NCBI GenBank assembly: GCA_006503535.1 | Contig: QYRS01000003.1 | Location: 1,116,001 to 1,180,000, forward strand | DNA: 64,000 nucleotides | Origin: Arthrinium phaeospermum | Taxonomy: Eukaryota; Ascomycota; Sordariomycetes; Amphisphaeriales; Apiosporaceae | Direction: 5' to 3' | Shown: one piece after another, positions 1 to 22,152 of the stretch | Layout: each line of letters begins with the position of its first letter | Position numbering within the stretch: position 1 is the first letter of the stretch | Notes under the pieces: model-generated | The model's database searches: none | What the model was told of the DNA's origin: nothing | Seen by the model: only the letters and a program-made list of their open reading frames with translations | Program-made: the position numbers and the translations under genes

Positions 1-137
1 GTCAATCGTTGGTGTTGTCAAGATCCCACGCGATGATACGTACCTCAAGGGAGGAATCGTTTTGACGATTGTCCTTCAAATGGCTGAGCATGTCTTCGCG
101 ACCAAACACCATGATCACTCGAAATCACGCCGTGGAT

Positions 138-163
138 GCAGTTTAGCCTCTTGCCCAGGAGGT
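138..163 (-). repeat. Hairpin 26-mer motif, copy 1
   Basis: The 26 bases here are identical to those at 4,709-4,734 and differ at a few positions from the copies at 2,833, 3,013 and 13,993. The plus strand carries CCTC, an 8-base loop and GAGG. Loop bases differ between the two subfamilies while the CCTC/GAGG arms are kept. On the minus strand it can be read as PPGQEAKL or PPGYEVKL. Origin unknown. Confidence 0.8.
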
Positions 164-417
164 GTGCCAAAGTGTATGAAAAGATGCTCAAATTGTTCTG
201 CCTGCCTGGCCAAGCTATGTAGTCCACCAGAGTTGCCTCTCTATCCCTATCCATGTCTCTTTGCTGACCGCTTTGGGGGTCAAATGGGGGCAGTGAGAGA
301 TTCAGCATGGAGGTGCTTGTTGATGGGGATCTTGCCGGTTGGCTCGGGGCAGGGGCAATAGTAGCACCGGTGGCAGGGGCTCCTTGGGTCGTCTCTGTCG
401 TCGCGGTAACCTCTCTC

Positions 418-532
418 TCCAAGGGACTCCAGCCTCCAGCACATCTCAAGCACCAACACACCCAGCGGCCAGAAGTCCATCTTGGTATATCGGGCCTCGT
501 CCAACGAAACCTCGGGCTCCAGATATTCCCTG
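418..532 (-). pseudogene. Sch9-type AGC kinase, C-lobe fragment
   Basis: Read on the minus strand, this piece matches subdomains VIII-IX of Sch9/SckA kinases: REYLEPEV followed by SLDEARYTKMDFWPLGVLVL. The usual family sequence is EYLAPEV...YTKMVDFWSLGVLVFEM, so the APE triplet has become EPE and one residue is lost before DFW. No kinase domain continues on either side. It lies downstream, in kinase order, of the N-lobe fragment near 2.1-2.3 kb, with about 1.6 kb of unrelated repeats between. Seen: the motifs and their order. Inferred: both pieces come from one Sch9-like ancestor. Confidence 0.7.
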
Positions 533-1798
533 GTGTGATCCCTGCACGTTCTGCCGCCGTCGGCACCGAACTTGGTATCCTGTTACAGGCCGCCGCCACC
601 TGCAATCCCAAGCGAGAAACGGACGCAGAATCGGAGGCGGAACAGCCCACGGTGCCTATTCTTTTCATCGCTCCGCCGCCTCTGGGAACGCATGGGGCTG
701 ACCTCCGGTAGGTCATCAGGGCTTCGTTGACGCGTCGGTTGCCTTGTACTCAAACGAGAAGTACTGTGTCTAAACGGCGTTCATCGCGGCCTCAACGCAT
801 CATGGACGTCGTTAAGCCCAAAGACAGAACCCTGAGCGAGGAAGACCTCATCGTTCTCCTCGCCAATAGCAAACTCGTGGTAGCCCCTCAAAATCAAGAT
901 AGTTCTCAGGGTTGCTAATATCGACGGGGGTGGGGGGTTGCGGGAGGGCAGGCAGACATGTGGCGAGTCTCTTCCTTCTCGTCAATGGGGATCAGAACAA
1001 GAGTGGAAGAGAGGCTGAGTATGTGTTGGGTAGATGGATAGAGAATATCTAAAACTCCCTGTCAGTCACCTGCTTTGTGTATGTGCACAGGTTCCAGTCA
1101 ACTTGGGGAAAGTTCACATACCTCTGAGAGCACAAAGACCGCTAGCAGGCAGCCTAGAACACACGCCTGCTTTTGACCTTCTGCCATCTCCGCTAGCAGA
1201 AACAACGGCTCCATGTCGCAACCATTGCGTCTGAGGCAAATGCGTGCGACTGCATGTTCGCATGGGCGGGCAGATGTTCTGTGTTCATAGACGGGTGACT
1301 GAACTGCAAGCCGGGACCAACAGGGAACTCGGTGCCGGCATCTCCCTTGTGATGGCTTAGCACCTCTTCTGCTTGAGATAGTCTTTCTTCACGAGCTTGA
1401 CCTCGTTCTACGACGTTCGTCTCGCGGCTGGGCCTACTTCTCGACGCGGTCAACGTCGTCCGCACGATATTGCTCGTCACCTTAGTGGACATCACTTACT
1501 CTTGACGTCTCTCCTTCAGCTCAGCGGGAGTAGTGTCGGGGATGACATGGGGTGTGGTAGCATCAGAGGGAAGACTTGATCGGGGACGGAGACTTGACGG
1601 CCAGTGGTCTCAGCTCGCTTGAGAGCCTTGTTTTGCTCTTGTGTAATGATAGCCTCTTGGGAAGGGCTGCAAACATATAAACGCACGTCCACCTAATCAA
1701 CGACAAATAAGCTGTGGTCTGGGTATCCAAGGGGGCAGTGTCTTCGTGGGTATCTTCAGGGGATTCGCAGTTTGTTGCTGTTGGTGTGGGGAGTCCAA

Positions 1799-1864
1799 GG
1801 AATGCCAAATGGAATGCCAAGGGGAATGCCAAGGAGAATGCCAAGGGGAATGCCAAGCGGGATG
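1799..1864. repeat. 12-bp minisatellite
   Basis: Five consecutive 12-base units of the form GGAATGCCAAGG with one or two changes per unit, then a partial unit. It lies within fragmentary minus-strand sequence downstream of the Sch9-like N-lobe fragment. In one minus frame it gives a WHSP repeat, but nothing suggests that this frame is translated. Confidence 0.9.
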
Positions 1865-2112
1865 CTTCTTGAATCTGCCCGACAGGCCACTCGTTGGCAC
1901 CCTGAACTCGACGCCGCTTGGTTTCGAGGGTGGCTCAAAGATCGGCCCCCAGATCGTGAGGTTGATGTCTACGCTTCGACCCTCTACTCGGAGCATGTTG
2001 AAAGCTCCCTTTCGGAGATAGAAAGCCCGGTAGGTTTGCATCCTCGTCTTCCCCGGGTGCCAGGGGATCCGTGAGTGCTCTGCCCTGTGTCTCTGTCGGA
2101 AAATACTTGCTT

Positions 2113-2306
2113 GTATCTAACAAGATATTTTCGGGCTTGAGATCGCGGTACACAATGTCGCTGTGATGAAGATGTTGTATGGCCAGGATCAGCTCGGAAA
2201 TAAAACTTGGCCCTCTTTTCGTCGAAGCGGCCTTCCTTCTGCAAATGCCAGAATAGTTCGCCTCCTGACATGTAGTCGGTGACTAGGAAAAGATCACCAG
2301 ATATGG
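2113..2306 (-). pseudogene. Sch9-type AGC kinase, hinge-to-catalytic-loop fragment
   Basis: The minus strand encodes DLFLVTDYMSGGELFWHLQK, then EGRFDEKRAKFY, and after a frame change the segment ELILAIQHLHHSDIVYRDLK and PENILLD. This is the hinge, helix E and YRDLKPEN catalytic loop of Sch9 kinases. The two halves lie in different frames: two bases are missing after KFY, which breaks the reading frame. The glycine loop and the DFG segment are absent nearby. This is a decayed DNA copy, not a functional kinase. Confidence 0.8.
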
Positions 2307-2720: not shown

Positions 2721-2724
2721 ACTA

Positions 2725-3095: not shown

Positions 3096-3168
3096 GTCGT
3101 ATCTTTCCTTGGAGAGATTCTCCCCCTACAGGAAAGAAGGATGCTCCCACCTTCTTCTTTTCTCCTTT

Positions 3169-3226
3169 TTCGATTCATACCAAGGTTTCCCGGCAGAAAC
3201 AAAAGACTCACAAAGAGCAGGTTACT
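3169..3226. repeat. Dispersed CT-tract/GGCAGAAA motif, copy A
   Basis: A pyrimidine-rich tract is followed by TCGATTCATACCAAGGTTTC and GGCAGAAACAAAAGACTCAC plus AAAGAGCAGGTTAC. It is almost identical over about 57 bases to 10,349-10,404. It resembles, over 35 bases, a sequence inside intron 1 of the metalloprotease-like gene (53,287-53,321). Confidence 0.8.
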
Positions 3227-4734: not shown

Positions 4735-6200
4735 CTTCACTTTTGTTACTGCACGCGTTACTCGTTTTTGACCTTCATCCAATTTATTTGCCCACATCTG
4801 CATCTATCTACTACGCACTACTTTGCTGGTGGATGCATGCCAGAGATTGGTGTGTTTTCCAAAGATAACTTTGGTTTTACCATTGGTTGATAGTCTCTCT
4901 GATAATTTTGTTGACTATGAGAGCCCTAGATGAGTACCGGCGATGTAGAGATATCTCTTCTGTGTAAGTGATAACTTCATGCTGGAGGAGATTGTCATGC
5001 CAGGGAAGGTGCCAACAGGGTCCATCCACACCTACACTCGGTTGAAGGGGTAGTTGCTGACATATAGTTGATCTTAGTGTATTGACTCTGTCTTTCTGGA
5101 GGTATTGCTTAGGTAGGAATTGATCTAGCCGCGGCTTGATTCCTAATCTGGAAGCCACCGCTTTCCAGCGAACGAACGAGACCCTTGGTAGCCGAATTCT
5201 CGACCGAAGTCGCTTCTCGAAGCGTTTCACGCGGAGCTAAAGTCGTTCGTGGCAGGCGTAACGACCGCAAGGAAATGCATGACGAGTCCTCGTCATCTGC
5301 CTTCATCGTCTCGGCAGCTTCCTTCTTTAAATCCACTGCTCTCCCAGCAGCTCACCCAGTGCTTCGAGGATCCTTGCCTCCAGAAACAATGCACCACCCT
5401 CACAGTCACTCGGCCGGTATCGACTCTTGGCCGACCTCCGCCGGAAGCCCCACCGTTCGTGTCTAAGTCATGTATTGTCAGCTTCGTTCGGAACCCGCTT
5501 TTGAAGGAGGTTTGCACCTACTCGCCCCCCTGGGGAAACCCCTAGTACGGAGCATTCGTCCAGATGCTACATCCCATTTGCCGATGAGCTGCAGTGGCCA
5601 ACATTGCACACTTCCGCAGGAGCACGTCGATGCACCTTCGCTTGATGCGTTGATGTTCATGTACCATCTTCCTCTTCTCCACTCCCACTGTACAAGCAAG
5701 CTGTGCCCCGCCCCTTTTTGCAGCTGCTACAATGTGAAGTTAGTTGAATGGATCTGGTAATATCATTTGGAGAGAACTCACAAGGTGGTAACAATGACGC
5801 CACCCCCGACCACCACACCCCCCAAATACATTGTCTACCGTGTGAAGAAATCCTTCACAATAGTCACGTAGTGACTATAGTTACGCCATGGCCGTCTTAT
5901 TCAATGTAGGCGGGAGCTCTTGACCAGCCAGGTCCAGAAAGGAAGAACCTTTCTTTCAGAGAGGCAGCGAGATGAGGAGACATTAAGAACTGCAGCCTTG
6001 AACCCCTCGCTGAAATCTTCGTTGCTGAAGAAAACCCAATCGTATCTGTGCAGCTTCGTCGTGAAGCCGGCCGAGAACCGGTGGCAAATCGGTCACTCAG
6101 GAAAAGAAACTGGTCTCGAATCGGTTGCGGAGGAAGTATCGTGGAACGAGATCTCGGATTCGCAATAACTCCATATCTCAGGGAAGAAACGAGGGCACCG
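4735..6200. other. Stretch without a recognisable gene
   Basis: Minus-strand frames stay open in places (5,109-5,517 and 5,897-6,280), but none contains a domain I recognise. A short word CGGAGCATyCGTCCAGATGC near 5,550 recurs near 20,105. It appears to be part of the fragment mosaic. Confidence 0.5.
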
Positions 6201-6389
6201 GTGAAGCTCGGGTTAGGAGGGTGCTTCAGGAGATTGAATCTTTCAGGCTCGTCGTCAGGGCCTTGTCGCGTGCCCACCACATATCGTCATTCTTTCCCAC
6301 CTCACCCTTCTCTCTCACCCGAGTCTTCCGCTTCGGGCTGAATCGCATTATAGCAGGGGATCCAAGCGAGAGATTATCGCAGGGGATCC

Positions 6390-6790
6390 AAGTGACAGCG
6401 TGTGCGACGGTGAGACCTAGCGCCTTCTTGCCATCATCATGATAGCTTATTCTTGACCCTTGGAAATATCCTAGTGCCAAAAGCTCGTTGAACGTCTCGG
6501 GCTTCAGGCTCATCGAAGTGTCCGAATAGTCGGTTGACAACTTCCGGATGAACTCGGACAAGTGAGTGATTCCGAGGGACTGTGCCCAATCCAGTTGAGC
6601 TAAACCCAGATTTCTTGACCCTCGGAAATATCCCAGTGCTAGAAGTTCGTTAAACTTCCGGGGGCCCGAGTGAGAGCGTGTGCGACGGTGGGACCCAGCT
6701 CTTTCTCGCCATCATCGTGGTAGCTTATTTTTGATCCTTGGAAGTATCCCAGGGCTTGAGGCTCGTTGAACCTCTCGGGTTCCTCTTCCA
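6390..6790 (-). repeat. Tandem duplicated segment, about 280-bp spacing
   Basis: The segment 6,390-6,513 recurs at 6,670-6,790 with a partial copy at 6,609-6,673. Shared features are GTGTGCGACGGTG, CGCCATCATC and TTGAwCCTTGGAArTATCC. On the minus strand the copies read as a repeated peptide ALGYFQGSrISYHDDG followed by TVAHA. The copies diverge by point changes and by truncation. The family is not recognised. Confidence 0.8.
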
Positions 6791-7149
6791 GACGGCAACA
6801 TACATCGATCAGGGCTATGCCCCGGCCGGACTCGGGGTCCCTACAGCGGTGCTGCAGGGTGGTGCGACCGCGGTCATGGAGACTTGCCGCATGCTCCTCA
6901 CTCTCCGTGTCATTTCGGCCCGTAGTCTGAGAGCTTGTATCCTTGCGCGCAACAAGCCTGCAGCGTCTTTCGGTGTATGCTTCAGCGGCTCTTCCACGAT
7001 CTCCCCGGCCACTCACCAAAGTACGACGGATCCTCGTCGATGCGGTCTGTGGGCTGTGAATCCATGATATTCTCGCAAGGTCGAACAACCTGCCGAACTC
7101 CTACGTCCTCGGAATCGCCGGTTCTCTGATCCAAGAATCTCTCGAGCCC

Positions 7150-7425
7150 AGAAAGCTCTACCGTGTGGAGAAAACCTTCATGGGTCTTGTTAAACGGCAA
7201 TGCATCCGCGAGCTGTCCACGCTTGTCCGCAAAGTCAAGTGGCCGTCCGCTTGGCTCCCAGACAGGCCTACCGTGTGGAGAACACCTTCGTGGTTCTCGT
7301 TGAACTGCAGCGCGTCCACGAAGGCCTACGGGGTGACGGCAACCTTCGTGGCTCTTGTTAAACGGCAATGCATCTGCGAGCTGTCCGCGCTTATCGGCAA
7401 AGGCAAGTGGCCGTCCGCATGGCTC
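7150..7425 (-). repeat. Duplicated coding-like segment (ADKRGQLADALPFNK)
   Basis: Two copies of about 95 bases, near 7,150-7,250 and 7,330-7,425, read ADKRGQLADALPFNK on the minus strand. A shorter third piece lies between them. The minus frame runs open from about 7,700 to 6,980. Glutamine/alanine-rich low-complexity sequence lies at its start. No known domain. Confidence 0.7.
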
Positions 7426-7552
7426 TGGTTTGTGTCCATGGATGTCATCAGGACTGGAGGTCTCAACTTTCGCAACGGTCGCAGGGGCAATTTCGGTCGC
7501 GCCTACTGCAGCAGCTGCAGCTTCTTGCTGCTGGTCTTGGTAGGAGGACGAG

Positions 7553-8049
7553 ATGATCGTCGCTTCCTGTTGATGCTGTGACGATGACGCGGGGTTGGCT
7601 GTATGCTGACCCAATGACGCGATGGGACCCTGTACAGGCGCGATACGCGCCAACCAAAGCCACTCAATCTCTGACCCCAGTTTCATCTCTGAGGCCACGA
7701 CGGAGCGATCTCGGCTCTTGCGTAGGCCTCGAGCCTCCAGGAAGGTAATAATGAGTTTACCCTTCTGCCAAGAGAGCCCAGAGCTGCCGCCGCCTCCACT
7801 CTTCTCCTATACGGGAGTGTCGCGCCCACTGACTGCTTCCACCGCATTCTTGTTGCCCCTGACCCTGCGACGATGAAGTGATCGTCGCTTCCTGTTGATG
7901 TTGTGACGAGGTGATCGTCGCTTCCTGTTGAGACTGTGACGGCGATGCGGGGTTGGCTGTATGTTGATCCAAGGACGCGATGGGACCCTGTACAGGCGCG
8001 ATACGCGACAACCAAAGCCACTCAATCTCTGACCCCAGTTTGATCCCTG
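7553..8049 (-). repeat. 140-bp direct repeat, two copies plus a partial
   Basis: 7,553-7,690 and 7,911-8,049 share about 140 bases, including GATCGTCGCTTCCTGTTGA, GCGGGGTTGGCTGTATG and GGGACCCTGTACAGGCGCGA. A 32-base partial copy sits at 7,879. On the minus strand both copies read KLGSEIEWLWL and RIAPVQGPIASL. The copies are close enough to suggest a fairly recent duplication. Confidence 0.85.
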
Positions 8050-8484: not shown

Positions 8485-8830
8485 TCACCTCGTTCTCGTC
8501 GCTCCTGTGGTGGGGATCAGGATGTTCTTCTTGATGGCATCGCGCAGAGGGCCGGAACTTTCGCCTTTCATGCGCCCGAGGTACTTCGGGTCGAATATGG
8601 TGTTGCCTTCTGAGTGGTCAACGAGCTCCGAGATGTCTTCCTCCTCATCCAGGTCAGGAACTCGGCTTCGGAGAAGAGAGAAGATGGCCATAAAGATGGC
8701 ATTGAGGCTGTCGGCCCGTCGAGACACATCACGAGGCTTGTTGACATGAGGGTCTGCCTTGTCGATGTCCGTGATGACGAGGTAGTTGTTTGCGACGCTC
8801 TTGTAGGACTGAAACTCGTTAGCAAATCGG
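8485..8830 (-). pseudogene. Unidentified minus-strand exon-like segment
   Basis: A single open minus-strand frame reads about 110 residues containing SYKSVANNYLVITDIDKADP, SLNAIFMAIFSLLRSRVPDL and DEEEDISELV. A donor-like GTAAGT lies just upstream on the minus strand at about 8,857, after DAKFIEE. The acceptor-like TTTCAG precedes SYKS. The peptide looks protein-like in composition, but I do not recognise the family. It may be one exon of a captured or decayed gene. Confidence 0.4.
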
Positions 8831-9093
8831 TTGTTGAAGAAGTTCTTGGGTATGACTTACTTCTTCAATGAACTTGGCATCAGGGGGCCACCCTTTGTTC
8901 GAGTGAGTCGCAGTTGTCAGTCGTTGTGCTGCTGCTGTTGCCGTTGAACATGTTGCTGAATGTTCCTGGGCCGGCCAAGCCCCCTTTGTCGAAGTTATCA
9001 TCAGGCATACCGACCACCGCCAATAAGGCCAGCTCACCAGCGACCTCGGCAAGTCATCAGATTGCAGCGCCAGTGTTGAAGGTACTGCTCTGT

Positions 9094-9334: not shown

Positions 9335-9545
9335 ACTCGCGCCAGGCTCAAGTCGCCAAGCTTCAGCATGCCTTTGGGGCAAGTCAGATGATTCTAATGC
9401 TTCATCGCGACTTGGATAATCAGAAGATTCTGTGGCTTCAAGTCACGATGAAGCACCCGGTTTTGGTGGCAGAAGTCTATGCCCCCCTTTGGCAGCTGGC
9501 ACATGAAGGGCTCGGGTGCTTTCACGATGGCTATGTTGATGTGAC
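9335..9545 (-). pseudogene. Pho85-type cyclin-dependent kinase fragment
   Basis: The minus strand reads [20 protein letters not shown] then [10 protein letters not shown], interrupted by stops, then KGMLKLGDLSLARVFGI. This is the helix E, catalytic loop (HRDLKPQN) and DFG region of Pho85 kinases. The DFG motif reads GDLSLA instead of GDFGLA. Stops lie between the two parts, and no N-lobe or activation segment follows. It is a non-functional fragment. Confidence 0.75.
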
Positions 9546-10029
9546 GCGCCGTTGGTGACGACAGCAGCAGCGTCCATCTCCTGGTTTTGTGGATGCAGGT
9601 GTTGAGATGCTGTGTGCCGGGAGCCATCAGGTTTGGGCGCCTTTTTAGACGTGGGTTTCGTCTTCTCATCGCTGCCTGGCTGATACAGTTAGTGATTTGG
9701 TTCATCAAAGCACTTCTTGCTACTAGCACTGGGGATATCACCGGTGCGTCTTACCAGTCTCTTGTCCAACCGAATTTCGGTCCCCGCGCTTCTTTCTTCG
9801 TTCTCCAGCTGTGCAAAGCACAACCGGAATCTTCTCTTCTCGGCGTGTGCAGCTTCTGGTCTTCCTGGTGCAGATGTCTTGGAGGTGGCCGGCAAAGAGA
9901 GCTGAAAGAACTCGTCGCAGATTGGCGTGGTTGTTGGTTCTGAAAGGAGGGGACCGGGCGGCGCTTGGAAGGGTCTTTCGCTTCCTGCCCCTTTCTTCGT
10001 GTTTCCCGATTCCCCTCCCATCATCTTTG

Positions 10030-10118
10030 CATACTCACGTTCAAATTCGGCCTCATCTTCAGGGTCGACTTCCCCGGCTTTTCGGGTGACGATGATTGCT
10101 TCATCCTCAGAGTCGGAT
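10030..10118 (-). pseudogene. Possible Upf2/Nmd2 C-terminal fragment
   Basis: A minus frame of about 150 residues begins with DSEDEAIIVTRKAGEVDPED and continues EAEFEREYAKMM. This resembles the acidic C-terminal segment of fungal Upf2 (VTR...IDPEAEADFDREFAKMM). The rest of that frame, to about 9,690, has no resemblance I can name. The match is short, so the assignment is tentative. Confidence 0.4.
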
Positions 10119-11060: not shown

Positions 11061-11108
11061 ATTGCATCCGAAGCCTTCATATTTGGCCTCAGGCCAGGGG
11101 CGACCATC

Positions 11109-12469: not shown

Positions 12470-12600
12470 ATTGACCTGGTCGCCGTGCTGGTCGGGATTC
12501 TGCTGGTCGGGACGATACTAGTCGGCGAAATGCTGGTCGGCGGGCATCTGGTCGGCGTGAATCTGGTCGGCGAGATGCTGGGGGCGTGATGCTGGGCGAC
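12470..12600. repeat. CTGGTCGGCG minisatellite
   Basis: About nine imperfect copies of a 13-15 base unit of CTGGTCGGCGnnAT type. The minus strand reads RRPDSRRPDARRPAF. It directly follows, on the minus strand, the carrier fragment ending near 12,650, and appears to be a slippage expansion. Confidence 0.8.
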
Positions 12601-12639
12601 TCCTCTCCCGACAGCTCACTGCCGCTGCCCGAGATGTCG

Positions 12640-12870
12640 GCGGCGACCTGGAAGAGCACCTTGCCGAAGCTTGCCAGTGCTCTTTCGATCGGCCACGCGG
12701 GAAAGGAGGCCATACTGCTCGCGCTTGATCTTGCCCTATGGTGAATCCAATATGTTAGAAGTCGTCCTGGGATGTTTGGAGAAGCACGGCAACTGCTTTT
12801 GGGGAGACTTACATAGTCCTCGTCGTGCGGCGCGATGGCATTAACAAACTCCTCCTCGCCCATGTAGAGC
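12640..12870 (-). pseudogene. Mitochondrial aspartate/glutamate carrier (AGC) fragment with intron
   Basis: The minus strand reads GEEEFVNAIAPHDEDY, then a GTAAGT donor (near 12,817), a roughly 75-base intron with CTAAC and a CATAG acceptor, then GKIKREQYGLLSRVADR. This matches the EF-hand region of fungal Agc1 carriers (FVDAIAP..EDYHKIKREQYGILFRVADR). After VADRKSTGKL the reading degenerates. No transmembrane carrier repeats follow. Retention of the intron shows that the copy was made from DNA, not from mRNA. Confidence 0.65.
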
Positions 12871-12976
12871 TCTCCGCCAAGACCCGGCATCCTTGACTGC
12901 GTGGTCAACGAAGTAAGCCCGAGTCTTGGCAGAGAGCTCTACGGGCTCCTCATGGCCCAGGAGGGACTCCTTGACA

Positions 12977-13284
12977 CCTGCAAGGCGAGGCCACCCCCGA
13001 CCATGCAAGGCCAGGCGATTCCCAACCATGCAAGGCTTGGCCACCCCCTTCTCCTGCGGGGCAAGGCCACCCCTTCTCCTGCAAGGCAAGGCCACCCCAT
13101 TCCATGCAAGGCAAGGCCACCCCATTCCATGCAAGGCGCGGCCACTCCCGATCTTGCAAGGCACGGCCACCCTCCGCACTGCAAGGCATGGCCACCCCGT
13201 TACTCAAGAGCAACCTGCAGGGCGCGGCCACCATGCAAGGCGCGGCCATCTTCTTCTCTGCAAGGCATGGCCACCCCGTAGGCG
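12977..13284. repeat. TGCAAGGCnnGGCCACC minisatellite, about 12 units
   Basis: About twelve units of TGCAAGGCxxGGCCA separated by 8-18 bases of partly shared CCCCATTCCA-type sequence. Single or double units of the same word occur at about 8,154-8,190 and 11,860. The array lies immediately downstream, on the minus strand, of the 2EXR-like fragment. The minus strand reads as GWPCLAWNGVALP-like peptides. Confidence 0.9.
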
Positions 13285-13872
13285 TTCGAAGTATAAGCAG
13301 CTCAAACTCGCGTTCACGGCGAGCTCCTCCAGTTGGAGGCCCTCCAAGACGCGCAGGTGCGATCGCTGGAAGGAGACAGCCAGGCGTCTCCAGCCGTTGC
13401 TGCGCGTGATCAGGAGCTCCGCGGCCAGGCGCTCAAAGTACAGGCATCCCAGATTCGCATGCACGACGAGCTTCTCCAGACGCATGTCCTCCAGAACCCG
13501 AAGTAACTCGTGCAGGAGAACTTCGGCCTGGGGTCTGGCTGGAGTTCGGACGGCCACCATCGACCCCATAAGGCCGAACACCGTGACGTAGCGGACACTG
13601 CTAAGGGGGCCGGGGAAGGTGAGTAACTTGCGGATCATGATCTCAGGGGAACCGAAATGAAGCTCGATCTCTTCCATCCACAAGGGGCCGATCTCTCCTC
13701 GTATGCGTCGGCAGCATGCGAGCAAGGCAAGGGGGTGGCGCTCGTGCTCGTACGCAGGACGATTCGTGAACTCTAAATAGCGGTAGATCTCATCGCGGAT
13801 CTCTTGAGGGATCCGGTATAAGAGGCTGCCAGCCTGGGGATCAGGGGCGTTGTTGGAAGAAATAACGAACAC
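13204..13872 (-). pseudogene. 2EXR/F-box-like protein fragment running into minisatellite
   Basis: The minus ORF of 222 residues starts MFVISSNNAPDP and contains LLYRIPQEIRDEIYRYLEF and ALLACCRRIRGEIGPLW, the N-terminal signature of fungal 2EXR/F-box-like proteins. Residues of about 110-190 hold two related blocks (LEKLVVHANLGCLYFERL and LEELAVNASLSCLYFERL). At DNA level these are a 147-base tandem duplication (13,291 and 13,438). The last 25 residues are translated from the TGCAAGGC minisatellite, so the natural C-terminus is lost. A possible upstream exon (DDEPEDHEEFQKRLDQPQFV) lies at 13,870-13,990. It could still be expressed, but the end looks artificial. Confidence 0.55.
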
Positions 13873-14018: not shown

Positions 14019-15111
14019 GTTCTCGGCATTATACTCTGGTAAGTGGTTGCCGTTTTCTGTGCGCAAAGAAGACGGCACAAACGAAGGACTTGGCGGAAGA
14101 GGTGCTGGGCTCGGCGCTCGAGGAAACATGAAGCTGGAGTGCGGTACTAGCACTCGGTTCGGTACTGGGAGGCGCCTGAATAATCGCTTATTCCAATGGC
14201 CCGGGGACTGTGCTGGACGTGGGCAGGGTCTGAGTAATGTTTACCCTAGCAAAGCCAAACGGAGAAGGAGCCCTCCCCGGTCCAGAGGTACGTTTCGCAG
14301 GCGTGAATGCGTCGATTCCGGTTTTCCTCGTCATTCGCCGTCAGAGTCTGTGCTCGTTCGGGGCTGTTGTGTTCGAGAAACCAATTAGCTCGAAATCCGG
14401 TCGTGTTTCGGTTACGCAAGAGCTACTTACCTTCTACTCGGAAATAGTTAAGACCGCACTTCGTTATTGCTAAGATGTTTCGGGAGAACCTGCGGACAAG
14501 ATTGTGAGTACCTTCATGAGTCATGAAAGGGCACAAAGAGGTACTGCCGGCTTGGTACACTCTGCGTATAATAGCGCTGCGACTGGAGGTTCTGAGGGGC
14601 TTCTTCCACTTCCTCTGGAGTATCGAGGTTCGCCATGGGGCCTTGATCCTCATAGGCCGGGCAGTGTGTATTGTGGAAGCTGCAGTCGGCTCTGTACTCG
14701 AAGTCTACGGTCTCTTGGTACAGCATGGCGTGTACGTTCATCATCTCCAGTGCGACGCCCTGCGCTGACCCTCGCCCTGCAGTATACCGCCATCCTTGAC
14801 GGATCCCCGCTGCCAACAGGACTTGCTCAGGACCATAAGTCAGCTTCTCGACGGGCGTTGGGCAGTCTGGACAAAGAGCATGTGGGTAGCCAATGTCATG
14901 AAAGTACCAAACTCGGCCTATGCTGTGACGATGACGGGGTGGTCGATGTCTGTTGGCCTTGGGGCGATGACGGGGTGATCGCTTGCTGCTGGACAGGCGC
15001 GCCAGGCCATTCGTTGGCATCCCTGAACTCGTCCCGCCACCACCCCCTTCTTGCCATCACGGAGGCCTCTCGCGGCGGCCGTACTCTAGGCCGTTGAAGT
15101 CCCGGGGGCTG

Positions 15112-15654
15112 CTGTCCTTGACGGAGTTGACGGCCTTTTGGCTTGTCGGAGGCCATGCCACTCTCGGTGAGAGCGGCCGTTGGCGTTGAAGGGATAACCC
15201 TTCTGAAGTATCTCCTCGATGATACTGGTCCATTGAGTTGGAGATGGATTGGCATGTTTATATACAGCCAAGAGCAGGTCGCAACGGGCCTGCTCGTTCC
15301 AATGGAAACGAGGGACTCGTCCCCTCGGGACTCTTTGGCGATTCAAGTCCCAGAGGCTGTTGTCCTTGACGGAGTTGGCGGCCTTTTGGCTTGTCGAGCC
15401 CATGCCACTCTCGGGGAGAGCGGCCGTTGGAATTGAAGGGATATCCCTTCTGCAGCGTCTCCTCTTCGATGCTGGTCCATTGGTTGGCAGCATTAGCGTT
15501 GAAGGGGTAGCCCTTCTGGAGAGTCTCCTCGATGATTGCAGTCCACTGAGTCGGAGATGGATTGGCATGTTTGTAAACAGCCAAGAGCAGGTCGCAACGA
15601 GCCTGCTCATTCCAGTGGAATCGGGGGACTCGTCCCTTCGGGGCTCTTTGGGGG
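15112..15654 (-). repeat. Triplicated Myb/SANT-like domain segment
   Basis: Near copies lie at 15,112-15,262, 15,358-15,483 and 15,488-15,572. On the minus strand they combine into RFHWNEQARCDLLLAVYKHA, then NPSPTQWTAIIEETLQKGYPF and REWHGL. The spaced aromatic residues (W..QAR.DLLLAVY...W..I...L) resemble a fungal Myb/SANT-like DNA-binding helix bundle. Two copies have the start of the domain, at 15,299 and 15,612. A fourth, FNWTEKARLDLRVA, lies at about 16,263. Copies are interrupted and in different frames, so an intact protein is unlikely. Confidence 0.6.
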
Positions 15655-16229
15655 TTCAAAGAGCTTTTCGAATCGCATGTCCTTGCCGCCGGCGCAGATC
15701 AAGTTCCGGCCAGCATTTCCAGCCCATGTCGAACTGACATTCTCTCACCAGAATACTTAAGTGAAGGAAGCACGACCTTCATCCCAGGCTTCTCGGCGAA
15801 ATCCCGGACTGGTGGGAGTGTCAACGGCGTTGGCGTCGTTCGCATATCTTCTCGGTAGAATAATCTCGTTCGCGAACGCTTCTAGTTGTAATACCACCAG
15901 AAGAGAGGCCTTGAGTCGCAAGCAAGAGGCATTGGTGTCGCCGCATCGGTTCTTGGCTGTCTTCTCAGTCTTGGTGACGCCCAGCACGACAATCTTCTTG
16001 CACCGGCTATTGCATTCAAGGTGACTTTCAAAGAAGATTGTCGACTTGACCGCATGCCGAGTAGAGTTCGAGTTGCTCGGCTAGCTTTGTTCGCACGCAT
16101 GCAGTAAGCCAGGCTTGGGGAAGTAGTGCCTTTCGGCACATGTCGCGCCGCATGCCCTTTGAGCACACTTTTGGTGATATGCGACACCGTATGCAGGCAC
16201 TTCTTGTGTCGCTGCTTGTTCGACCGCGC

Positions 16230-16300
16230 GCCACACGCAAGTCCAGTCGTGCCTTCTCTGTCCAGTTGAAACGAGGGACTCGTCCTTGGCCAACCATGGT
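16230..16300 (-). pseudogene. Myb/SANT-like fragment, additional copy
   Basis: The minus strand reads RVPRFNWTEKARLDLRVA, paralogous to the RFHWNEQARCDLLLAVY segment at 15.1-15.7 kb. The rest of the domain is not recognisable here. The plus-strand DNA word GAGGGACTCGTCC is shared with the other copies. Confidence 0.5.
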
Positions 16301-17032
16301 GATGGTAGTGGCAGTGAATGGAGGATAAAGAGGAATGTGGTTGGTGGTGGAAAAAGGACGACCGCAAAAAAAGGACGATGCGTTAAGGACGATGTGGAAA
16401 GGACGTTCTGGGAAAGGACGTCGCAAGAAAGACGATCGCAAAGAGGGTGGTCGAACAAGGGTAGTAGGTAGCCCCTTTCAAGGCGTCTCGACAGAACTCT
16501 CGACGGGGGTATCTTGGGAGATCGGGGATGTCTCCAAAGCATGCAGTTTTCACCTCCAGAGGCAGATGTGTTGGGTTCAAGCTTCAAGAGAGGCGAGAAG
16601 GGTGCTGCTCGGCAAAGGCGTCCAGTCGAGGTCTTGAGCCTGTTCGGACAGTTAGTTGCGGCGAAGCTGAGGCAGGGATGTGAACTACTTGCCTCAATAT
16701 CACCAAGAAAGCGTCTTCTGATTTCCTTCCTTTCTCCGCTCATTTTCGTTTCCTTCGTTTCCTTTGAGCTTTCTGCTGAAACGAAATCGTTCGAAATCGT
16801 TCGAAACCGTTCGTCGGCGCCTGCGAACGGTTAGTGTCATGCTGCGTCGATGTGTCTCTGTATAGAGTGACTTACATCACCTCAGGCCGGGTCCATGTTG
16901 GCGTAGTCCTCTCAGCGCTTGATGTTGACGGCCGAGGTGGAGAGCGGCTTCTCCCGGTGTTGTCGTTGCTGTTGTTTCTGCCAATGGTGACTGGCGATGC
17001 GGGATGAACCGAATGCGAGGGAGCTGCGCCGT

Positions 17033-17145: not shown

Positions 17146-17231
17146 CAATAAGCCTCCTTTGGCATCCTGGTACAACCTTCCAGCTCCTTGGCTTCTGGAT
17201 ACAAGTTGAACTTCTCCAAGTCGGGTGCGCC

Positions 17232-17632
17232 AGTCTTGAAAGCGGGAGACTCGGTCTTCATCTCTGCGGGGGGGAGACTCGATCTTTATCTCTGGTGAGA
17301 CACTTCGCTCCACCTTGAACATGGGAGAGCGATCCTGGCCCATACCATCACTGGCCTGATGCTCGTTCGTAGAGTTGCCTGGCCGCCGTGTTGCTTGGCT
17401 TCTTTGCCCGGGTCAGCCCCGATGGTTCGAGGGTGCAACAGCAAAAGGAAGCAAAAGGAAGCAAGAGGGAGCAAGGGGAAGCCAGTCTTGAAGTCGGGAG
17501 ACTCGATCTTGGTCTCTGGCGAGACACTTCGCTCCACCTTGAACATAGGGGATCGCTCCTGGCCCCTTCCATCCTTGGCCGTCATCTCGCTTGGCTTCTT
17601 TACCAGGGTCGGCCCCGATGGTTCGAGGGTGT
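17232..17632 (-). repeat. Tandem duplication around RSPMFKVERSVSPE
   Basis: 17,287-17,435 and 17,511-17,632 are near copies, each led by AGTCTTGAArkCGGGAGACTCG (17,232 and 17,484). The minus strand of both reads RSPMFKVERSVSPE followed by KIESP. The 5' copy carries an insertion of about 30 bases. Purine-rich GGAAGCAAGAGCAAG arrays adjoin both. Confidence 0.85.
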
Positions 17633-18490
17633 AAAAGCGAGGGGAAGCAAGAGCAAGGGGAAGCAAGAGCAAGATGGAGCAAGAGGAATTTGGCCTGGCA
17701 GCCGCAGATGCCTCTCTCATGCATCCACTGGTGCTCGAACATGACAATATCCACCCATCGTGAGTGCATGACCCGGCTACACGCTGGGCACATGTCGCCG
17801 GCCATGGTAGGTCGATGGCTTGGGTCCTTGCCGATCGGGATGGGAGCAAGACAGTGGTAGCGATCGACCATCATGTCGGTTTTGTTGATTGTGAAGATGA
17901 AGGGAGCCTCTGCTTTCCTCCTAACACTCTACTGGATGAGATGGTCAGTTCTGCGTAGAAGTCGTATTGCTTGAGGGCACTTACATTGTCCTTATCATAC
18001 TCGACGAACAGGTCTGAGTCCTCCTCAGGAACCTCGGTCGGGGTAGACGATCCTCGTTGGAGCCGAACAAGCTGTCTGGTCGGTAACGTAGTCGGGTCGA
18101 TGTGGCTATACTTGTTAAGCCACTTCAATGGATCGAATTGTTTGTGTTTGTGACTGTAGCCGTCGACGAGCTCAGGGATAGGTTGCATGAACAGAGTAGG
18201 CTCGTCGTCGAGGTTGATGACAGGAGATGTTGTGCCGGGCAGCAGGGGGTCGTCTCGAATGCAGAACGACAGCACGAGGACCTTGAGCAGCAAACCAACA
18301 ATGGTAACAAGGCCTTTGCTGCGGAGTACGAAGGGACTGCAGACAGGTATGCGTATGCATAAGCAATACAGACCCGACGATGGGAATCTGGGAGCAAAAG
18401 CAAGAGGGCAAAAGCAAGGGTGAGAAAGCAAGAGCAAGAAGGTGGAAGCAAGAGCAAAGGAGTGGGAGCAAGAGCAAGGTTGGTTGAGCC
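17440..18490. repeat. GGAAGCAAGAGCAAG low-complexity arrays
   Basis: Three separate arrays of the same purine-rich word, at 17,440-17,485, 17,640-17,690 and 18,390-18,480, lie between otherwise unrelated segments. Their repeated independent appearance suggests local expansion of a short seed or copying between sites. Confidence 0.7.
17870..18240 (-). pseudogene. Unidentified spliced minus-strand fragment
   Basis: The minus strand reads INLDDEPTLFMQPIPELVDG, QFDPLKWLNKYSHIDPTTLP and EEDSDLFVEYDKDN, followed by a good GTAAGT donor at about 17,994 and a candidate CATCCAG acceptor. Composition is protein-like, but I do not recognise the family. Upstream, toward 18.5 kb, the frame dissolves into low-complexity sequence. 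Confidence 0.4.
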
Positions 18491-19132
18491 TTCATCGCCC
18501 TCGGCCTTCAGACGGGAGTTGAACGACTCCTGGTCACGGGGATCGAAGTCAGTAAACTTCGGATCATGGGTGAAGCATCGGCAACCGCGGATGGGTGAAG
18601 CATCGACAACCGCAGAACTTGATGATCTTCACACCGAGGCCTTGAAGATCGACCTCGTTGCCCATGCTGGGATCGTCCAGAAGGGTATCACTTGACGAGC
18701 GACGGTTGTTGTAGGCGGGACTACCGCCGGCCTTGGCCTTGGCCTTGGCCTTAGCACTTGAGCTGTGGAGCTGAAGTGCAGTACTTGCACTCGGCTCAGC
18801 ACTCGCAGAAGCCAACGTGCTGTACTGGGAGTGGAATGGGATGCTGGTAGGATCCCTACAAAGGGCCAAGGGCTAGCATGTTGTCGTGCCACGCAATGCG
18901 CGATCCAGGGCAACAAGGAATCGAACAAGCTTCTCTCTCATGTAATAGAAGAAGTTGCCGTGAACATCGTCATGTGGCACGTTCGAGTTCTTTGGGGGCG
19001 CGTAGAGATCGGCCCAAGCCTCCATCGGATCGAACCCGTAGTCCCGGCATCTTTCCCAGCTCGGAAAGAAGGCCGGGTTCGGATACTTGAACTCTGCCTT
19101 TGAAGCTGTCCTCCGGTGGAGGACGCCCGTTT

Positions 19133-19540
19133 TCAAGTATTCCATCCGGCTCGAGCGCCATCTTCAGCAACAGACGTCGAAGCGAAAATGCGCATCATTG
19201 ATGCCATCGGGGTTCTTCGCGATTCGGGCGGCGTTGTACTTCTCGTAGGCTTGGACGAGCCTGCCGTCTTGGCGTCGTTCTGCCACCGGCTCAGCACTTG
19301 TACAAGCCAATCGGCTGTACCCGCGAAGGGAAGGCACGCCAGTAAAAAGCGCAACCGAATATCTATAAGAGGTTAGTAAAGGCGCAAACACGAAATTTCC
19401 AAGAGTCGAATGAGAAGAACATACCTTGTATGTCAAGTTCTGGGTGAACCCGACGCTCCTGCCGAGGCTTGTCGATTTGTCCTTCTGCCGAGGCTGTCGA
19501 TTTTGCCATGGTACGGTGTACCAGGCTGTCGACCTCGCCG
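19133..19540 (-). pseudogene. Unidentified minus-strand fragment with a good 56-bp intron
   Basis: MAKSTASAEGQIDKPRQERR and VHPELDIQ are followed by GTATGT, CTAAC and CTCTTATAG (intron about 19,370-19,425), then an open frame with QAYEKYNAARIAKNPDGIND. The complete set of splicing signals argues that this DNA was, or still is, part of a transcribed gene. No domain is recognised. Confidence 0.4.
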
Positions 19541-19672
19541 TCGCTCAGCGATGATGCTGTCAATGCATTCCTGGACACTGGAATTCACCAACAGAAACCG
19601 GCTCCTGTCGACGGGGGGGCGGAAGAGGTCCCGGCTATCGTGTCGCTTCGAGAAGGAACACCTCGTTATAAA

Positions 19673-20300
19673 TCAGCTTATCCGGGTCGACGGGTAGCCG
19701 AATTCGAAATGCTCCGGGCAGTTCATCGACAAACATGCCCATCCGGCCGCGTATACGGATTTGCTGTATTCTCCACACGAGGGACAGGACCTTCCATCAC
19801 ACTTCACTTCCGGATCGACCTTCTCCAGGCGAGCCATATACTCTGGAACTAGGCTCCCGTCCACTGTGGGGGTTTTGTGAGCCCACATGTATGTGACGGC
19901 AAAGAAGCCCATGAGGCAGAAGGGGTGCGGCGGCCCGACCGGGTAATTCGGATTCTTTGACCCTATTGCACAGCGTCAGTCAGTTCATCAACTCCAGCTC
20001 CCTTCACGGGGCGTCTTACCAATCACAACGGAGACCGGCACCTTCTTCTCGAAAGCATTCATCAACGCTCTGTATGGCCGGGAGTTCTGGTCCTGACCTT
20101 TGGTCCGGAGCATCCGTCCAGATGCATCCAGTTCTCTTCCCCCGCCGATACTAGAGTTCCGTCCACTGTAGGGGTCTTGTGAGCCCATATGTACGTGACC
20201 ACAAAGAAACCCGGCAGACACACCGCATGGTGGGGCGCGCTTCACCGGGAAGTTCGGGTTCTTTGTGGCCACGTACATATGGGCCTCCCCATAGGCTCTT
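19673..20300 (-). pseudogene. Duplicated AlkB-like/zinc-ribbon protein fragment
   Basis: The minus strand carries ALMNAFEKKVPVSVVIG, an intron (GTAAGA...CTGAC...CAATAG, about 19,960-20,020), then GFFAVTYMWAHKTPTVDG and a four-cysteine segment CPSCGEYSKSVYAAGWAC. This layout resembles the C-terminal part of fungal AlkB-like dioxygenases with a zinc ribbon. An upstream copy of the first part (NFPVKRAPPCGVSAGF, with HKTPTVDG in a shifted frame) lies at 20,152-20,264, about 300 bases away. No dioxygenase core (HxD...H) is visible. The assignment is tentative. Confidence 0.35.
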
Positions 20301-20579
20301 GCCCCTTCCTGGACGCTATCCGCGTCCGAGACGCCGTCTGCTGGTCCCATTAGTCTCCCAAATAGCGAGCTTGTTCGACATGGTGTTGGTACTTACCTGC
20401 CGCGGCCTGCACGAGCGCGCCGTTCTCTAGTCCTTCGGCAACGACGTGGCGGACCGGACTGCTCTTCCCTCTCAGCCTGCTGTTGATTCTTCATCGCGAC
20501 CGCGAAGGTAGGAGCCAGTCCAGTCCACCACGCCGCCTAACACCACAAGCCAGTTTTCGCCTTCCAGAACTCGTAAGTT

Positions 20580-20790
20580 AGTATCGGCTTGGGGATAGGG
20601 AAAGGTGAGCAGGCCTACCTGGTGGCGTCGCCTCGGGAGCGTCTGCCCAAGCTTGGTTCTCTTTTTCGGGCGGAATCGCCGGCGCTGCAACCTTCTCAGC
20701 ATCTTGACCTTGGCCATGGTCAGCGGCGTCTGCGTCTTGCTGATTAGTATGATGTTCAAGTAGTGACAAGTATCGAAAAACGAACGCATT
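20580..20790 (-). other. Spliced minus-strand exon candidate
   Basis: A minus frame reads DADAADHGQGQDAEKVAAPA and PPEKENQAWADAPEATPPG. It ends at CCAG/GTAGGC, followed after about 35 bases by CTAAC and TTACGAG. The donor and branch point are good fungal signals. The peptide is low-complexity and the downstream exon soon hits stops, so only a transcribed remnant can be proposed. Confidence 0.35.
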
Positions 20791-20799
20791 TGAGCGGAG

Positions 20800-22152
20800 G
20801 AAGAGATAAGTGCAACGAAGGAGGAAATGAGTGCGTTGGAGGAAAAAATGAATGCAACGAAACAGAACGAGTTTCGGTTGAGTAGGCTGGGTCAAGAAAG
20901 ATGATAGAGACTCGGCGTTGATCAAAAGTGATGCAATGCTCCGGAAGAGGGAATCTTGGGGAAGTGAAGTGACAAGGCCAGAGACCGCCAGGTGAAGGAA
21001 ATCCAAGGTAAACCGGCCAAAAGAAGAAGAGCGGACTGTACCAAGGTGGTTGATTCAGACGCGGTTCTCCTCAAATGTGATGTTTCTGGGATGGGAAATG
21101 TTGGATATTGGATAAATGGCATCACGAGACCGACAGGCGAACGAAGGTCAACGTCAGGCGGTCGGACAAGAGGAACGGAAGAAGTATGTGATGAGGAAGG
21201 AATTTTAGGTGAAGGCGGTCGAGAAGAACTTTGGAGTAGACCACGTTCGAACTGCGGTCGATGTGAAATACCAAATTCTCCAACACTGGGTTGCGAAGTG
21301 AAGAGTGGTGGTGAAGTTGCAAGTTGGGGAAAATACCTACCGGGCCACAGAATCAAAGATATCATCTATCTTGATGAGGGCAAATATCGTTGAGGCAGAG
21401 GATATTGTGAAGGCGGAAGTGAAGCAAGAGCGTAATATGGTTGATGGAGGTGATGAAGGATGTGAGGAAGGCCAACCTACCTTGGCACAAATAATATTGT
21501 GTTCCCTTGAGGGAAGAGCGGTGATGAAGTTGTGGTGATGTGACAAAGGTAGGTGTTGGGCTCATCGATCTTGTGGAGAGAGGGAAAAAAGAGCAAAGGG
21601 CAGATGCGAGAGATGACATATAACCTACCTGCGGAGCAAAGAATGGCAAAGGACAAGTGATGCTGGTGATATATAACGTACCTATTGCTGTCTGTGCCTG
21701 ATGCCATACCAGTGTGAGCGGATGTGATGTTTCGTTCATGGTGCGGTGATGTATGACGGAGGAACGGTGAAGTGCGTTGATAGAAGAGCGGAACGAGAAA
21801 AGATGCGGCGGCTTGGTGGCGGAGTGGAAGGTGGGAAGGTGAAGTAAGTAGGTGGGAGAGTGGAAGGTGGAAAGACTGGCTCTTTGAAGAGCGTCTGCGC
21901 AAGTGAAGTTCGGTCGGACGAGAGGGACGTTCGTTCGGGGGAAGAGATGTTGAAGTGCGAGGTGCGGTATAATAAAAAAGACTTACTTCTTTGCCGGCGA
22001 CGATAAAGGTGCGAGGCGTTGAAGCAACCGTTCACGGAAGGATAGGTGGTGTGGTGAAGGGTGAAGATGAAAGATGAAGTTGAAGTTGGTGAAGTTGGTG
22101 ATGGAAGGAAAGGAAAGAAGATGGGGAATGGGAGGGGAGATGGGTATTTATA
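20800..22152 (-). other. Putative minus-strand transcript with repeated GTAGGT sites
   Basis: The minus strand is strongly pyrimidine-rich. A TATAAATA octamer at 22,145-22,152 is followed by a CT/ACTTCACC-rich stretch typical of fungal 5' leaders and a GTAAGT at about 21,986. Then come CAATAG/GTACGT (about 21,681), CGCAG/GTAGGT (about 21,626), AAG/GTAGGT (about 21,480) and CGGTAGGT (about 21,340). The first ATG (21,739) opens only a short frame. This could be a noncoding RNA or the long leader of a gene further down. No protein is proposed. Confidence 0.35.
22145..22152 (-). promoter_or_regulatory. TATA box for minus-strand transcript
   Basis: TATAAATA on the minus strand, the same octamer found before both genes of the divergent secreted-protein pair near 52.7-53.0 kb. 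A CT-rich leader-like sequence follows it. Confidence 0.4.

What the first reader, a model, noticed from the sequence alone, without database searches (positions are those of the whole stretch)
1..20800. One-strand mosaic of decayed fragments from unrelated conserved genes
Kinase (Sch9-type, Pho85-type), carrier (AGC-type, probably Ca-regulated), Upf2-like, 2EXR-like, Myb-like and AlkB-like pieces all lie on the minus strand. Each is truncated, several are frame-broken, and several keep introns with donor, branch and acceptor. Intact parents must lie elsewhere. Intron retention excludes mRNA-mediated retroposition. A single orientation for so many pieces is not expected from random insertion. 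It recalls fragment capture by rolling-circle elements (Helitrons) or a locus that accumulates DNA copies by template switching. I saw no RepHel helicase and no TC...CTRR ends, so the mechanism is open.
Basis: partly seen in the sequence, partly recalled or inferred. Interest (0 to 1): 0.9.

Follow-up and report, generated by a model that had tools for sequence, protein, structure and literature searches.

The report
One-strand mosaic of copied gene fragments
A stretch of a fungal chromosome is a patchwork of short decayed copies of pieces of more than thirty unrelated genes, every testable piece pointing the same way as the stretch's own putative promoter, which hints that the cell may write bits of its own transcripts back into DNA there.

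Summary
Window 1-20.7 kb, from a 48.4 Mb Apiospora-like genome, is a mosaic of 23-591 bp pieces (median identity 86%) matching 34 fetched gene loci elsewhere in the genome. Of 83 tiles tested, 59 lie in donor coding sequence that is sense on the window's minus strand, 0 are antisense, 24 are non-coding; by donor 27 of 27. Introns are retained where spanned. Pieces are unconstrained while donors are conserved. A second mosaic at C2:4,898-4,915 kb shares donors and is mostly one-stranded too: 19 of 24 tiles sense, 2 opposite, 3 unclear. Both begin downstream of a TATA box and pyrimidine-rich leader pointing in the pieces' sense direction. I found no Helitron protein (control silent too), no flanking inverted repeats, no RIP. 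Best explanation, mechanism inferred: recurrent patch insertion into a transcribed locus, templated by unspliced transcripts (0.45). Main rival: DNA-templated patches with antisense insertions removed by selection (0.30). No expression data were available; transcription is inferred from sequence.

The parts
22145..22152 (-). Putative TATA box (TATAAATA) at the 5' side of the mosaic; following 150 bases 70% pyrimidine on minus
   Evidence: the only TATAAATA on minus between 18 and 26 kb; none on either strand of 1-20,800. Transcription untested.
20740..22130 (-). Pyrimidine-rich putative 5' leader; no donor pieces found in it
   Evidence: GC skew +0.38 on plus at 21-23 kb.
20644..20679 (-). Piece of C6:2784567-2784602, the most promoter-proximal piece found
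   Evidence: 94.4% over 36 bp.
19613..20265 (-). Two tiles of C6:2783097-2783682 (AlkB-like by my reading), tandemly overlapping, one donor intron retained
   Evidence: 79.9% and 76.5%; intron read by eye.
19520..19579 (-). Piece of C4:2625549-2625607 (short-chain dehydrogenase gene); the neighbouring donor sequence is at 20306-20332, the C6 pieces lie between, and 12 bp are present on both sides (11 of 12 and 12 of 12 matching the donor)
   Evidence: 85.0% and 96.3%.
19172..19290 (-). Piece of C6:1079582-1079711 (protein kinase gene)
   Evidence: 73.7%.
18899..19160 (-). Piece of C3:1673739-1674000 (DUF4470 gene)
   Evidence: 91.2%.
18477..18847 (-). Piece of C2:711210-711544 with an internal 25-bp tandem duplication
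   Evidence: 83.3%.
18070..18352 (-). Piece of C10:2547681-2547963 (Glyco_transf_15 gene)
   Evidence: 84.5%.
17220..17842 (-). Alternating pieces of C6:2568718-2568820 and C13:245254-245491, with short tandem repeats at joins
   Evidence: 74.9-91.2%.
16056..16200 (-). Piece of C2:1389893-1390037; 11 of 47 residues changed although the donor stretch is identical in three Apiospora orthologues
   Evidence: 82.8%.
15180..16441 (-). Five tiles of C3:1022016-1022483 (non-coding by the model, beside minus-strand frames), interspersed with other pieces
   Evidence: 82-88%.
14822..14915 (-). Piece of C10:2546371-2546464 (Glyco_transf_15 gene); the same stretch is also in the second mosaic (C2:4904655-4904748)
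   Evidence: 84 of 94 bases to donor, 88 of 94 to the C2 copy.
13280..13857 (-). Two tiles of C3:3842881-3843406 (reader: 2EXR-like; no Pfam match)
   Evidence: 83.3% and 76.9%.
12979..13198 (-). 25-bp minisatellite, 8.8 copies, between pieces
12667..12975 (-). Piece of C10:682468-682767 (EF-hand mitochondrial carrier gene), donor intron retained
   Evidence: 87.1%.
12213..12671 (-). Piece of C13:611339-611476 (C2H2 gene) split by a piece of C2:5073542-5073898 (12258-12598); 10 bp of donor missing at the split
   Evidence: 93.6%, 100% and 86.8%.
11978..12195 (-). Piece of C6:1795366-1795581, apparent donor intron retained
   Evidence: 79.4%.
11182..11472 (-). Piece of C6:2783675-2783962
   Evidence: 85.9%.
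11108..11168 (-). Piece of C9:1782845-1782903, near an RRM_2 gene
   Evidence: 91.8%.
10730..11102 (-). Piece of C3:378126-378327 split by a piece of C2:3940967-3941138 (10773-10944), no donor base lost
   Evidence: 80.4%/84.5% and 94.8%.
10608..10665 (-). Piece of C12:518830-518888; neighbouring donor sequence at 10199-10229
   Evidence: 94.9% and 100%.
10232..10614 (-). Pieces of C14:195817-196018, interrupted by a retrocopy (10328-10421) with A-rich tail on minus and about 14 bp flanking direct repeat
10018..10114 (-). Piece of C2:3878043-3878139 (MIF4G gene locus)
   Evidence: 92.8%.
9514..9688 (-). Piece of C13:1008749-1008926
   Evidence: 92.7%.
9336..9512 (-).
   Evidence: 93.3% and 87.9%.
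8519..8833 (-). Pieces of C9:2664485-2664898; the missing donor stretch does not look like an intron
   Evidence: 76.7% and 76.2%.
7693..7847 (-). Piece of C12:521221-521375 (upstream frame of the Sch9-type kinase locus)
   Evidence: 86.5%.
6373..8006 (-). Several pieces of C6:2782480-2782965 and C6:2784334-2784566, locally duplicated, with a piece of C5:94400-94539 at 7016-7155
   Evidence: 83-95%.
5960..6061 (-). Piece of C10:2547469-2547570
   Evidence: 84.3%.
3152..3225 (-). Second copy of the dispersed A-tailed retrocopy
   Evidence: 92.0%.
2116..2302 (-). Piece of C12:522122-522310 (Sch9-type kinase domain)
   Evidence: 92.1%.
1953..2111 (-). Pieces of C4:2564544-2564602 (hybrid histidine kinase gene) and of C9:1987757-1987814 (RICTOR-type gene locus)
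   Evidence: 93.2% and 87.9%.
1256..1337 (-). Piece of C13:891126-891207 (C2H2 gene)
   Evidence: 86.6%.
421..534 (-). Piece of C12:522396-522511 (Sch9-type kinase)
   Evidence: 84.6%.
1..220 (-). Piece of C6:1320425-1320664 (non-coding; minus-strand frames on either side)
   Evidence: 75.2%.

Best explanation
Window 1-20.7 kb is part of a long-lived accretion locus that continues to the left of the window. Over evolutionary time, short patches copied from genes elsewhere were inserted into it, in the orientation that matches its own putative promoter (TATA box at 22,152 on minus). Shown: the mosaic, the donors, the sense-only orientation of every callable piece in the window, retained introns, pieces inserted into other pieces, decay without coding constraint, the sharp limit on the promoter side, and a second such locus on C2. 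Inferred: the locus is transcribed on the minus strand, and the patches are templated by unspliced nuclear transcripts. The simplest version is that, when a break or gap in the transcribed locus is copied from its own RNA, the polymerase (a LINE-type reverse transcriptase or a repair polymerase able to read RNA) switches to another pre-mRNA and back. Both templates are then sense RNA, so every patch comes out sense, introns included. The same switching on the locus's own RNA would give the small tandem duplications, gains and losses seen at joins. The pieces probably have no protein function.
For: Orientation: 59 of 83 tiles coding-sense, 0 antisense, 24 non-coding; 27 of 27 donors with a coding tile agree (counted). 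Second locus: 19 of 24 tiles sense on its own promoter's strand, 2 opposite, 3 unclear; of the two opposite calls one is a 27-bp match and the other rests on what I read as an antisense shadow frame of a plus-strand gene. Introns retained unspliced (introns read from GT...AG and branch-like sequence, no gene models). Donors look genic: 59 of 83 tiles lie in modelled coding sequence, against 43% of window 24-64 kb. Recipient side: no recognised pieces in the C3 leader or upstream, and none upstream of the C2 box when compared with the fetched loci. Pieces lie inside other pieces: C2:3940 in C3:378, C2:5073 in C13:611, C10:2546 in C3:1674 on C2, C6:2783 in C4:2625. Target effects vary: no loss, 1 bp lost, 10 bp lost, 12 bp duplicated. 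The genome has reverse transcriptases (7 RVT_1 matches) and retrocopies of a spliced RNA. RNA-derived patches at breaks are reported in human cells (PMC5110952, abstract and section 5 read; PMC12065846, abstract read).
Against: No RNA or expression data; both promoters are sequence inference, and the C2 leader is only 61% pyrimidine. Overlaps at joins are only weakly above chance: 11 of 21 are 2 bp or longer against 28% of simulated blunt joins, Mann-Whitney p = 0.086, and 9 of the 21 joins are between tiles of one donor locus. I saw no poly(A) tail on gene pieces and no precise intron loss that would prove an RNA template. About half of the mosaic has no detected donor; in the 30 unassigned segments of 90 bp or more (9,330 bases) only 51 of 90 windows favour minus, p = 0.056, and the left extension C3:1112120-1116000 shows no strand signal (23 of 43, p = 0.82). 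Detection favours coding donors, so absence of intergenic donors is not shown. In two nested cases the host piece is closer to its donor than the insert to its own (C13:611 versus C2:5073; C12:518 versus C14), which a simple clock does not predict. One split carries a 12-bp duplication (C4:2625), which could also be read as a target-site duplication.
Confidence: 0.45

Rival explanations
1. Patches are copied from DNA (break repair or replication template switching) in both orientations. Antisense insertions are lost by selection because the locus is transcribed and antisense RNA to conserved genes would silence them through RNA interference.
For: Six Piwi-domain matches at four loci, so RNA interference is likely present; donors include kinase, RICTOR-type and MIF4G genes; introns retained; variable target effects fit end-joining patches (class 2 in PMC5110952, abstract read).
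Against: The 22 tiles of 90% identity or more include no antisense one (16 coding-sense, 6 non-coding), so removal would have to be quick and complete. No intergenic donors were recognised, although detection is biased.
Confidence: 0.3
2. The locus is kept because it works as a regulatory RNA locus: a long sense transcript of many genes feeds small RNAs or titrates regulators of the donors.
For: Putative promoter and leader in both loci, shared donors, RNA interference genes present.
Against: Pieces decay without constraint: 8.1%, 7.9% and 21.4% differences at codon positions 1, 2, 3, and one piece has 11 of 47 residues changed where the donor is invariant in four sequences. Median identity of 86% is poor for guide function.
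Confidence: 0.1
3. Helitron or other DNA transposon (Pack-MULE-like) that captured gene fragments.
For: Captured gene fragments are typical of such elements (PMC3288121 abstract start and three passages seen; Pack-MULEs recalled). One split shows a 12-bp duplication.
Against: No Helitron_like_N match (control silent); no long inverted repeats in 1-24 kb (the left end is outside the window); the one donor searched, C6:2782-2785, has pieces only in the two mosaics.
Confidence: 0.07
4. Chimeric LINE retrocopies of processed transcripts, as in Magnaporthe.
For: A-tailed, 5'-truncated, spliced retrocopies exist in this genome, two of them inside the mosaic; Magnaporthe precedent PMC2104539 (abstract and first part of section 4 read).
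Against: The gene pieces keep introns and show no tails or constant 3' end in the alignments that I read.
Confidence: 0.05

Closest known systems
Templated sequence insertions (TSI/TSIP), human cells (PMC5110952; abstract and section 5 read)
   Same: Short patches copied from distant donors that stay intact, enriched for transcribed sequence; RNA proposed as template.
   Different: There insertions seem randomly placed; here dozens accumulate, nested, in two loci and in sense.
WEIRD/MGL chimeric retropseudogenes of Magnaporthe (PMC2104539; abstract and part 1 of section 4 read)
   Same: Fungal fusions of unrelated transcripts by template switching.
   Different: Those have two or three parts, LINE or SINE 3' parts and 10-20 bp direct repeats; the gene pieces here keep introns and lack tails.
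Gene-fragment-capturing Helitrons and Pack-MULEs (PMC3288121 and PMC4289320, passages read; Pack-MULE recalled)
   Same: Mosaics of gene fragments from several donors.
   Different: Mobile elements with defined ends and a transposase or RepHel; none found here.
Single-orientation piRNA clusters such as flamenco (recalled, no call)
   Same: A promoter-driven locus that accumulates fragments in one orientation.
   Different: There transposon fragments, antisense, with small RNA function; here host gene fragments in sense, function unknown.

Membership tests
Helitron | RepHel protein in element or genome | tested here: inconclusive
   no Helitron_like_N match, but the 14 control genomes gave none either.
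Helitron | 5' TC and 3' CTRR ends with hairpin, AT target | not tested
   The left border lies outside the window.
Helitron | Dispersed copies of one element sharing ends | tested here: inconclusive
   two loci found, sharing donors; no common frame seen in the parts fetched, but neither locus was fetched whole.
Pack-MULE / TIR transposon | Terminal inverted repeats | tested here: inconclusive
   five pairs of 20-29 nt in 1-24 kb, two local hairpins and three 75-80% matches; no flanking pair, but the left end lies outside the window.
LINE chimeric retropseudogene | Processed (spliced) template | tested here: not met
   introns retained in pieces from C10:682 and C6:1795.
LINE chimeric retropseudogene | A-rich 3' tail and target duplication | tested here: not met
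   Eleven alignments show no tails on gene pieces; one split has a 12-bp duplication. The two true retrocopies do have tails.
Templated sequence insertion (class 2) | Patch from a distant donor still in place | tested here: met
   donors at other loci on both contig strands, most within open frames.
Templated sequence insertion (class 2) | Microhomology or small loss at joins, no constant target duplication | tested here: inconclusive
   overlap excess weak (p = 0.086); target effects variable.
Templated sequence insertion (class 2) | Insertions seemingly at random places (PMC5110952 abstract) | tested here: not met
   dense in two loci and sense-biased.

The most novel reading that the evidence does not exclude
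Two promoter-driven loci act as an RNA-to-DNA recorder: when they are repaired from their own transcript, reverse-transcribing synthesis jumps into whatever pre-mRNAs are nearby and back, so they write a sense-only, intron-bearing, layered record of the nuclear transcript pool into the genome over evolutionary time.
Probability: 0.25. Interest if true: 0.95.

Novelty: new variant of a known kind. Interest (0 to 1): 0.8.

Why it matters
Copying of RNA into chromosomes outside ordinary retrotransposition is known to me mainly from break assays and from scattered human insertions. A natural locus in which 27 of 27 callable donors agree in strand with the locus's own putative promoter would show such a process at work over evolutionary time. 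It would also be a test bed: sister strains should show fresh patches, and their donor, strand and intron state would decide between RNA and DNA templates.

Tried and rejected
Helitron and inverted-repeat transposon origin: see rivals. Repeat-induced point mutation: C-to-T changes are not raised in CA (3.7%, against 5.6-7.8% in CT, CG and CC), and changes towards G+C outnumber the reverse, 487 to 389 (summed by me). Coding function of the pieces: differences at positions 1 and 2 are equal, 8.1% and 7.9%. Cross-locus jigsaw (pieces of one donor divided between the two mosaics): suggestive by eye, not significant (2 adjacencies, p = 0.16; overlap 383 bp, p = 0.13). Exchange of pieces between the two mosaics: on identical bases, 50 of 56 in all three comparisons for C3:3842, and 84, 86 and 88 of 94 for C10:2546, so no support. 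Target-site duplication as a rule: only the C4:2625 split shows one (12 bp); the apparent 9-bp overlap at C12:518 is not a duplication (6 of 9 match). Microhomology at joins: weak. A known RNA family in the window: 0 Rfam matches. A chimeric protein shared with another Apiospora: 2 hits of 606 candidates to a 248-aa mosaic frame, each covering 23-32% of it; one matches a single donor-derived stretch, and neither shows a shared mosaic. Five paper searches listed nothing that I recognised as such a locus; only listed titles and abstract starts were seen.

Biases and rows dropped: the C2 stretches were fetched because they match the C3 mosaic, and one search compared them only with donors of the C3 mosaic, so the eight shared donors (list) overstate the sharing; in the unbiased genome search of one C2 stretch, about half of the ten or so donor places are also C3 donors. 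The 77-bp retrocopy family was left out of the counts; the second mosaic was left out as donor. At least six further donor places (C5:1666 kb, C4:1008 kb, C6:1290 kb, C1:1606 kb, C9:1407 kb, C5:2276 kb) were not fetched and not tested for strand.

Full report
What is there. The window is C3:1,116,001-1,180,000 of a 48.45 Mb, 19-contig fungal genome. Closest named proteins are from Apiospora: 94% for one donor frame to Apiospora sp. TS-2023a, 54-55% for a fast-evolving one. Searching the first 22.5 kb against the genome gives short matches to loci on both strands of 12 contigs, besides a dispersed repeat. Tiling at a loose threshold gives 86 tiles from 34 fetched donor loci plus one retrocopy family and one second-mosaic match, covering 10,035 of 20,800 bases. 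The region just outside, window 22,500-36,000, gives 14 matches of 66-87% identity, the pattern of gene families.

Orientation. I trained a codon-usage model on long frames of this genome; on held-out 150-bp fragments of such frames it names the strand correctly in 95-96% of cases. Applied to donors, 59 of 79 BLAST pieces were callable under a strict rule and all 59 put the donor's sense on the window's minus strand; 20 were unclear. With the tile map, 59 of 83 tiles are coding-sense, 0 coding-antisense, 24 non-coding. Of the 24, all have their nearest modelled frame on the sense strand except one tile of the C3:378 donor, which lies between divergent genes (557 bp to the antisense frame, 626 bp to the sense one); two other tiles of that donor have an antisense frame 0.9-1.0 kb away (flanks of about 1.5 kb or less). 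Counting donors, 27 of 34 have a coding tile and all 27 agree. If strands were random that would have a probability of about 2 to the power of minus 26.

Decay and direction of copying. Differences at codon positions 1, 2, 3 of the donors are 8.1%, 7.9% and 21.4%, as expected if the pieces change freely and the donors mainly at silent sites. One piece (16056-16200) differs from its donor at 11 of 47 residues, while the donor stretch is identical in three Apiospora orthologues. So copying ran from gene to mosaic. Identity ranges from 72% to 100%, so the pieces are probably of many ages. There is no sign of repeat-induced point mutation.

Introns and joins. Pieces from C10:682 kb and C6:1795 kb keep what read as donor introns, as does the C6:2783 kb piece. 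No precise intron loss was seen in the alignments read. Pieces lie inside other pieces: C3:378 split by C2:3940 with no donor base lost, C13:611 split by C2:5073 with 10 bp lost, on C2 C3:1674 split by a stretch holding C10:2546 with 1 bp lost, and C4:2625 split by C6:2783 with 12 bp duplicated. Local tandem duplications, minisatellites and two hairpin-like inverted copies occur at or near joins. Overlaps at joins are only weakly above a blunt-join simulation.

A second mosaic. Pieces of the same donors also occur at C2:4,898-4,915 kb (the locus was fetched in parts). Eight donors are shared, but this count is biased because the C2 stretches were fetched through matches to the C3 mosaic; in a genome-wide search of one C2 stretch about half of the donor places are also C3 donors. 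Chance sharing among thousands of genes would still be close to none, so donors are not drawn at random or the loci have a history in common. Of 24 C2 tiles, 19 are sense on C2 plus, 2 opposite and 3 unclear. Strand signal along the C2 stretches is clear in two (p = 0.00006 and 0.006) and weak in one (p = 0.21). On identical bases I found no support for exchange of pieces between the loci.

The recipient side. On the minus strand a TATAAATA lies at 22,152, followed by a pyrimidine-rich leader (70% in 150 bases), and the first recognised piece is at 20,679. On C2 a TATAAA lies at 4,898,259, followed by a 61% pyrimidine stretch, and the first piece is at 4,898,608. Pieces were recognised only downstream, in the sense direction: for C3 by genome searches, for C2 by comparison with the fetched loci only. 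The pieces nearest to both putative promoters come from the same donor, C6:2782-2785 kb. Whether the loci are transcribed is not shown.

Machinery in the genome. There are seven RVT_1 matches, Piwi matches at four loci, and no Helitron_like_N match (silent control). A dispersed repeat is a family of 5'-truncated retrocopies with A-rich tails; an intron-bearing copy lies at C10:2379-2380 kb, and four others lack those of its introns that fall within their length. Two of these retrocopies sit in the mosaic with the same orientation as the gene pieces; one has a direct repeat of about 14 bp. So RNA is written into DNA in this genome, but the gene pieces do not look like those retrocopies.

Interpretation. 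Any explanation must account for sense-only donors, a recipient with a promoter in the same direction, retained introns, nesting, variable target effects and recurrent donors. RNA-templated patching with template switching between the locus's own transcript and other unspliced transcripts accounts for these, but it is an inference. DNA patches with strict removal of antisense insertions account for most, if selection is quick, since the 22 tiles of at least 90% identity include no antisense one. Transposon capture and processed retrocopies fit less well.

Limits. No expression data, no related strain's DNA, and a cap on letters from the genome kept me from fetching the far ends of both mosaics and at least six further donors. 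About half of the region has no donor assigned, and its strand signal is weak. Coding donors are easier to recognise than intergenic ones.

Noticed in passing
L029 (C10:2378950-2380594, minus); copies near C2:4726.5k, C5:3173.5k, C3:1991k, C2:500.9k: Dispersed A-tailed retrocopies lack GT-AG introns that the C10 copy has; an RVT_1 frame lies about 2 kb further upstream at C10:2382367-2383083 minus. Perhaps an intron-bearing source gene or LINE whose spliced RNA is retrocopied.
   Followed up: partly
window 20183-20284 and 12864-12942: Two near-perfect hairpins where the donor sequence has only an imperfect palindrome or part of it, as if made by a hairpin-templated switch.
   Followed up: partly
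C14:195.8-196.0 kb versus window 10422-10614: The mosaic piece keeps a reading frame that matches an Apiospora marii protein (57 of 63 residues), while the aligned C14 copy lacks one base; the C14 'donor' may itself be decayed.
   Followed up: partly
window 61000-63300: GC-rich stretch (68% G+C) with overlapping long open frames on both strands (813 aa minus, 768 aa plus).
   Followed up: no
window 22545-23312: A 255-aa minus-strand stop-to-stop frame and a 24-bp tandem repeat (22822-22887) just upstream of the putative promoter.
   Followed up: no
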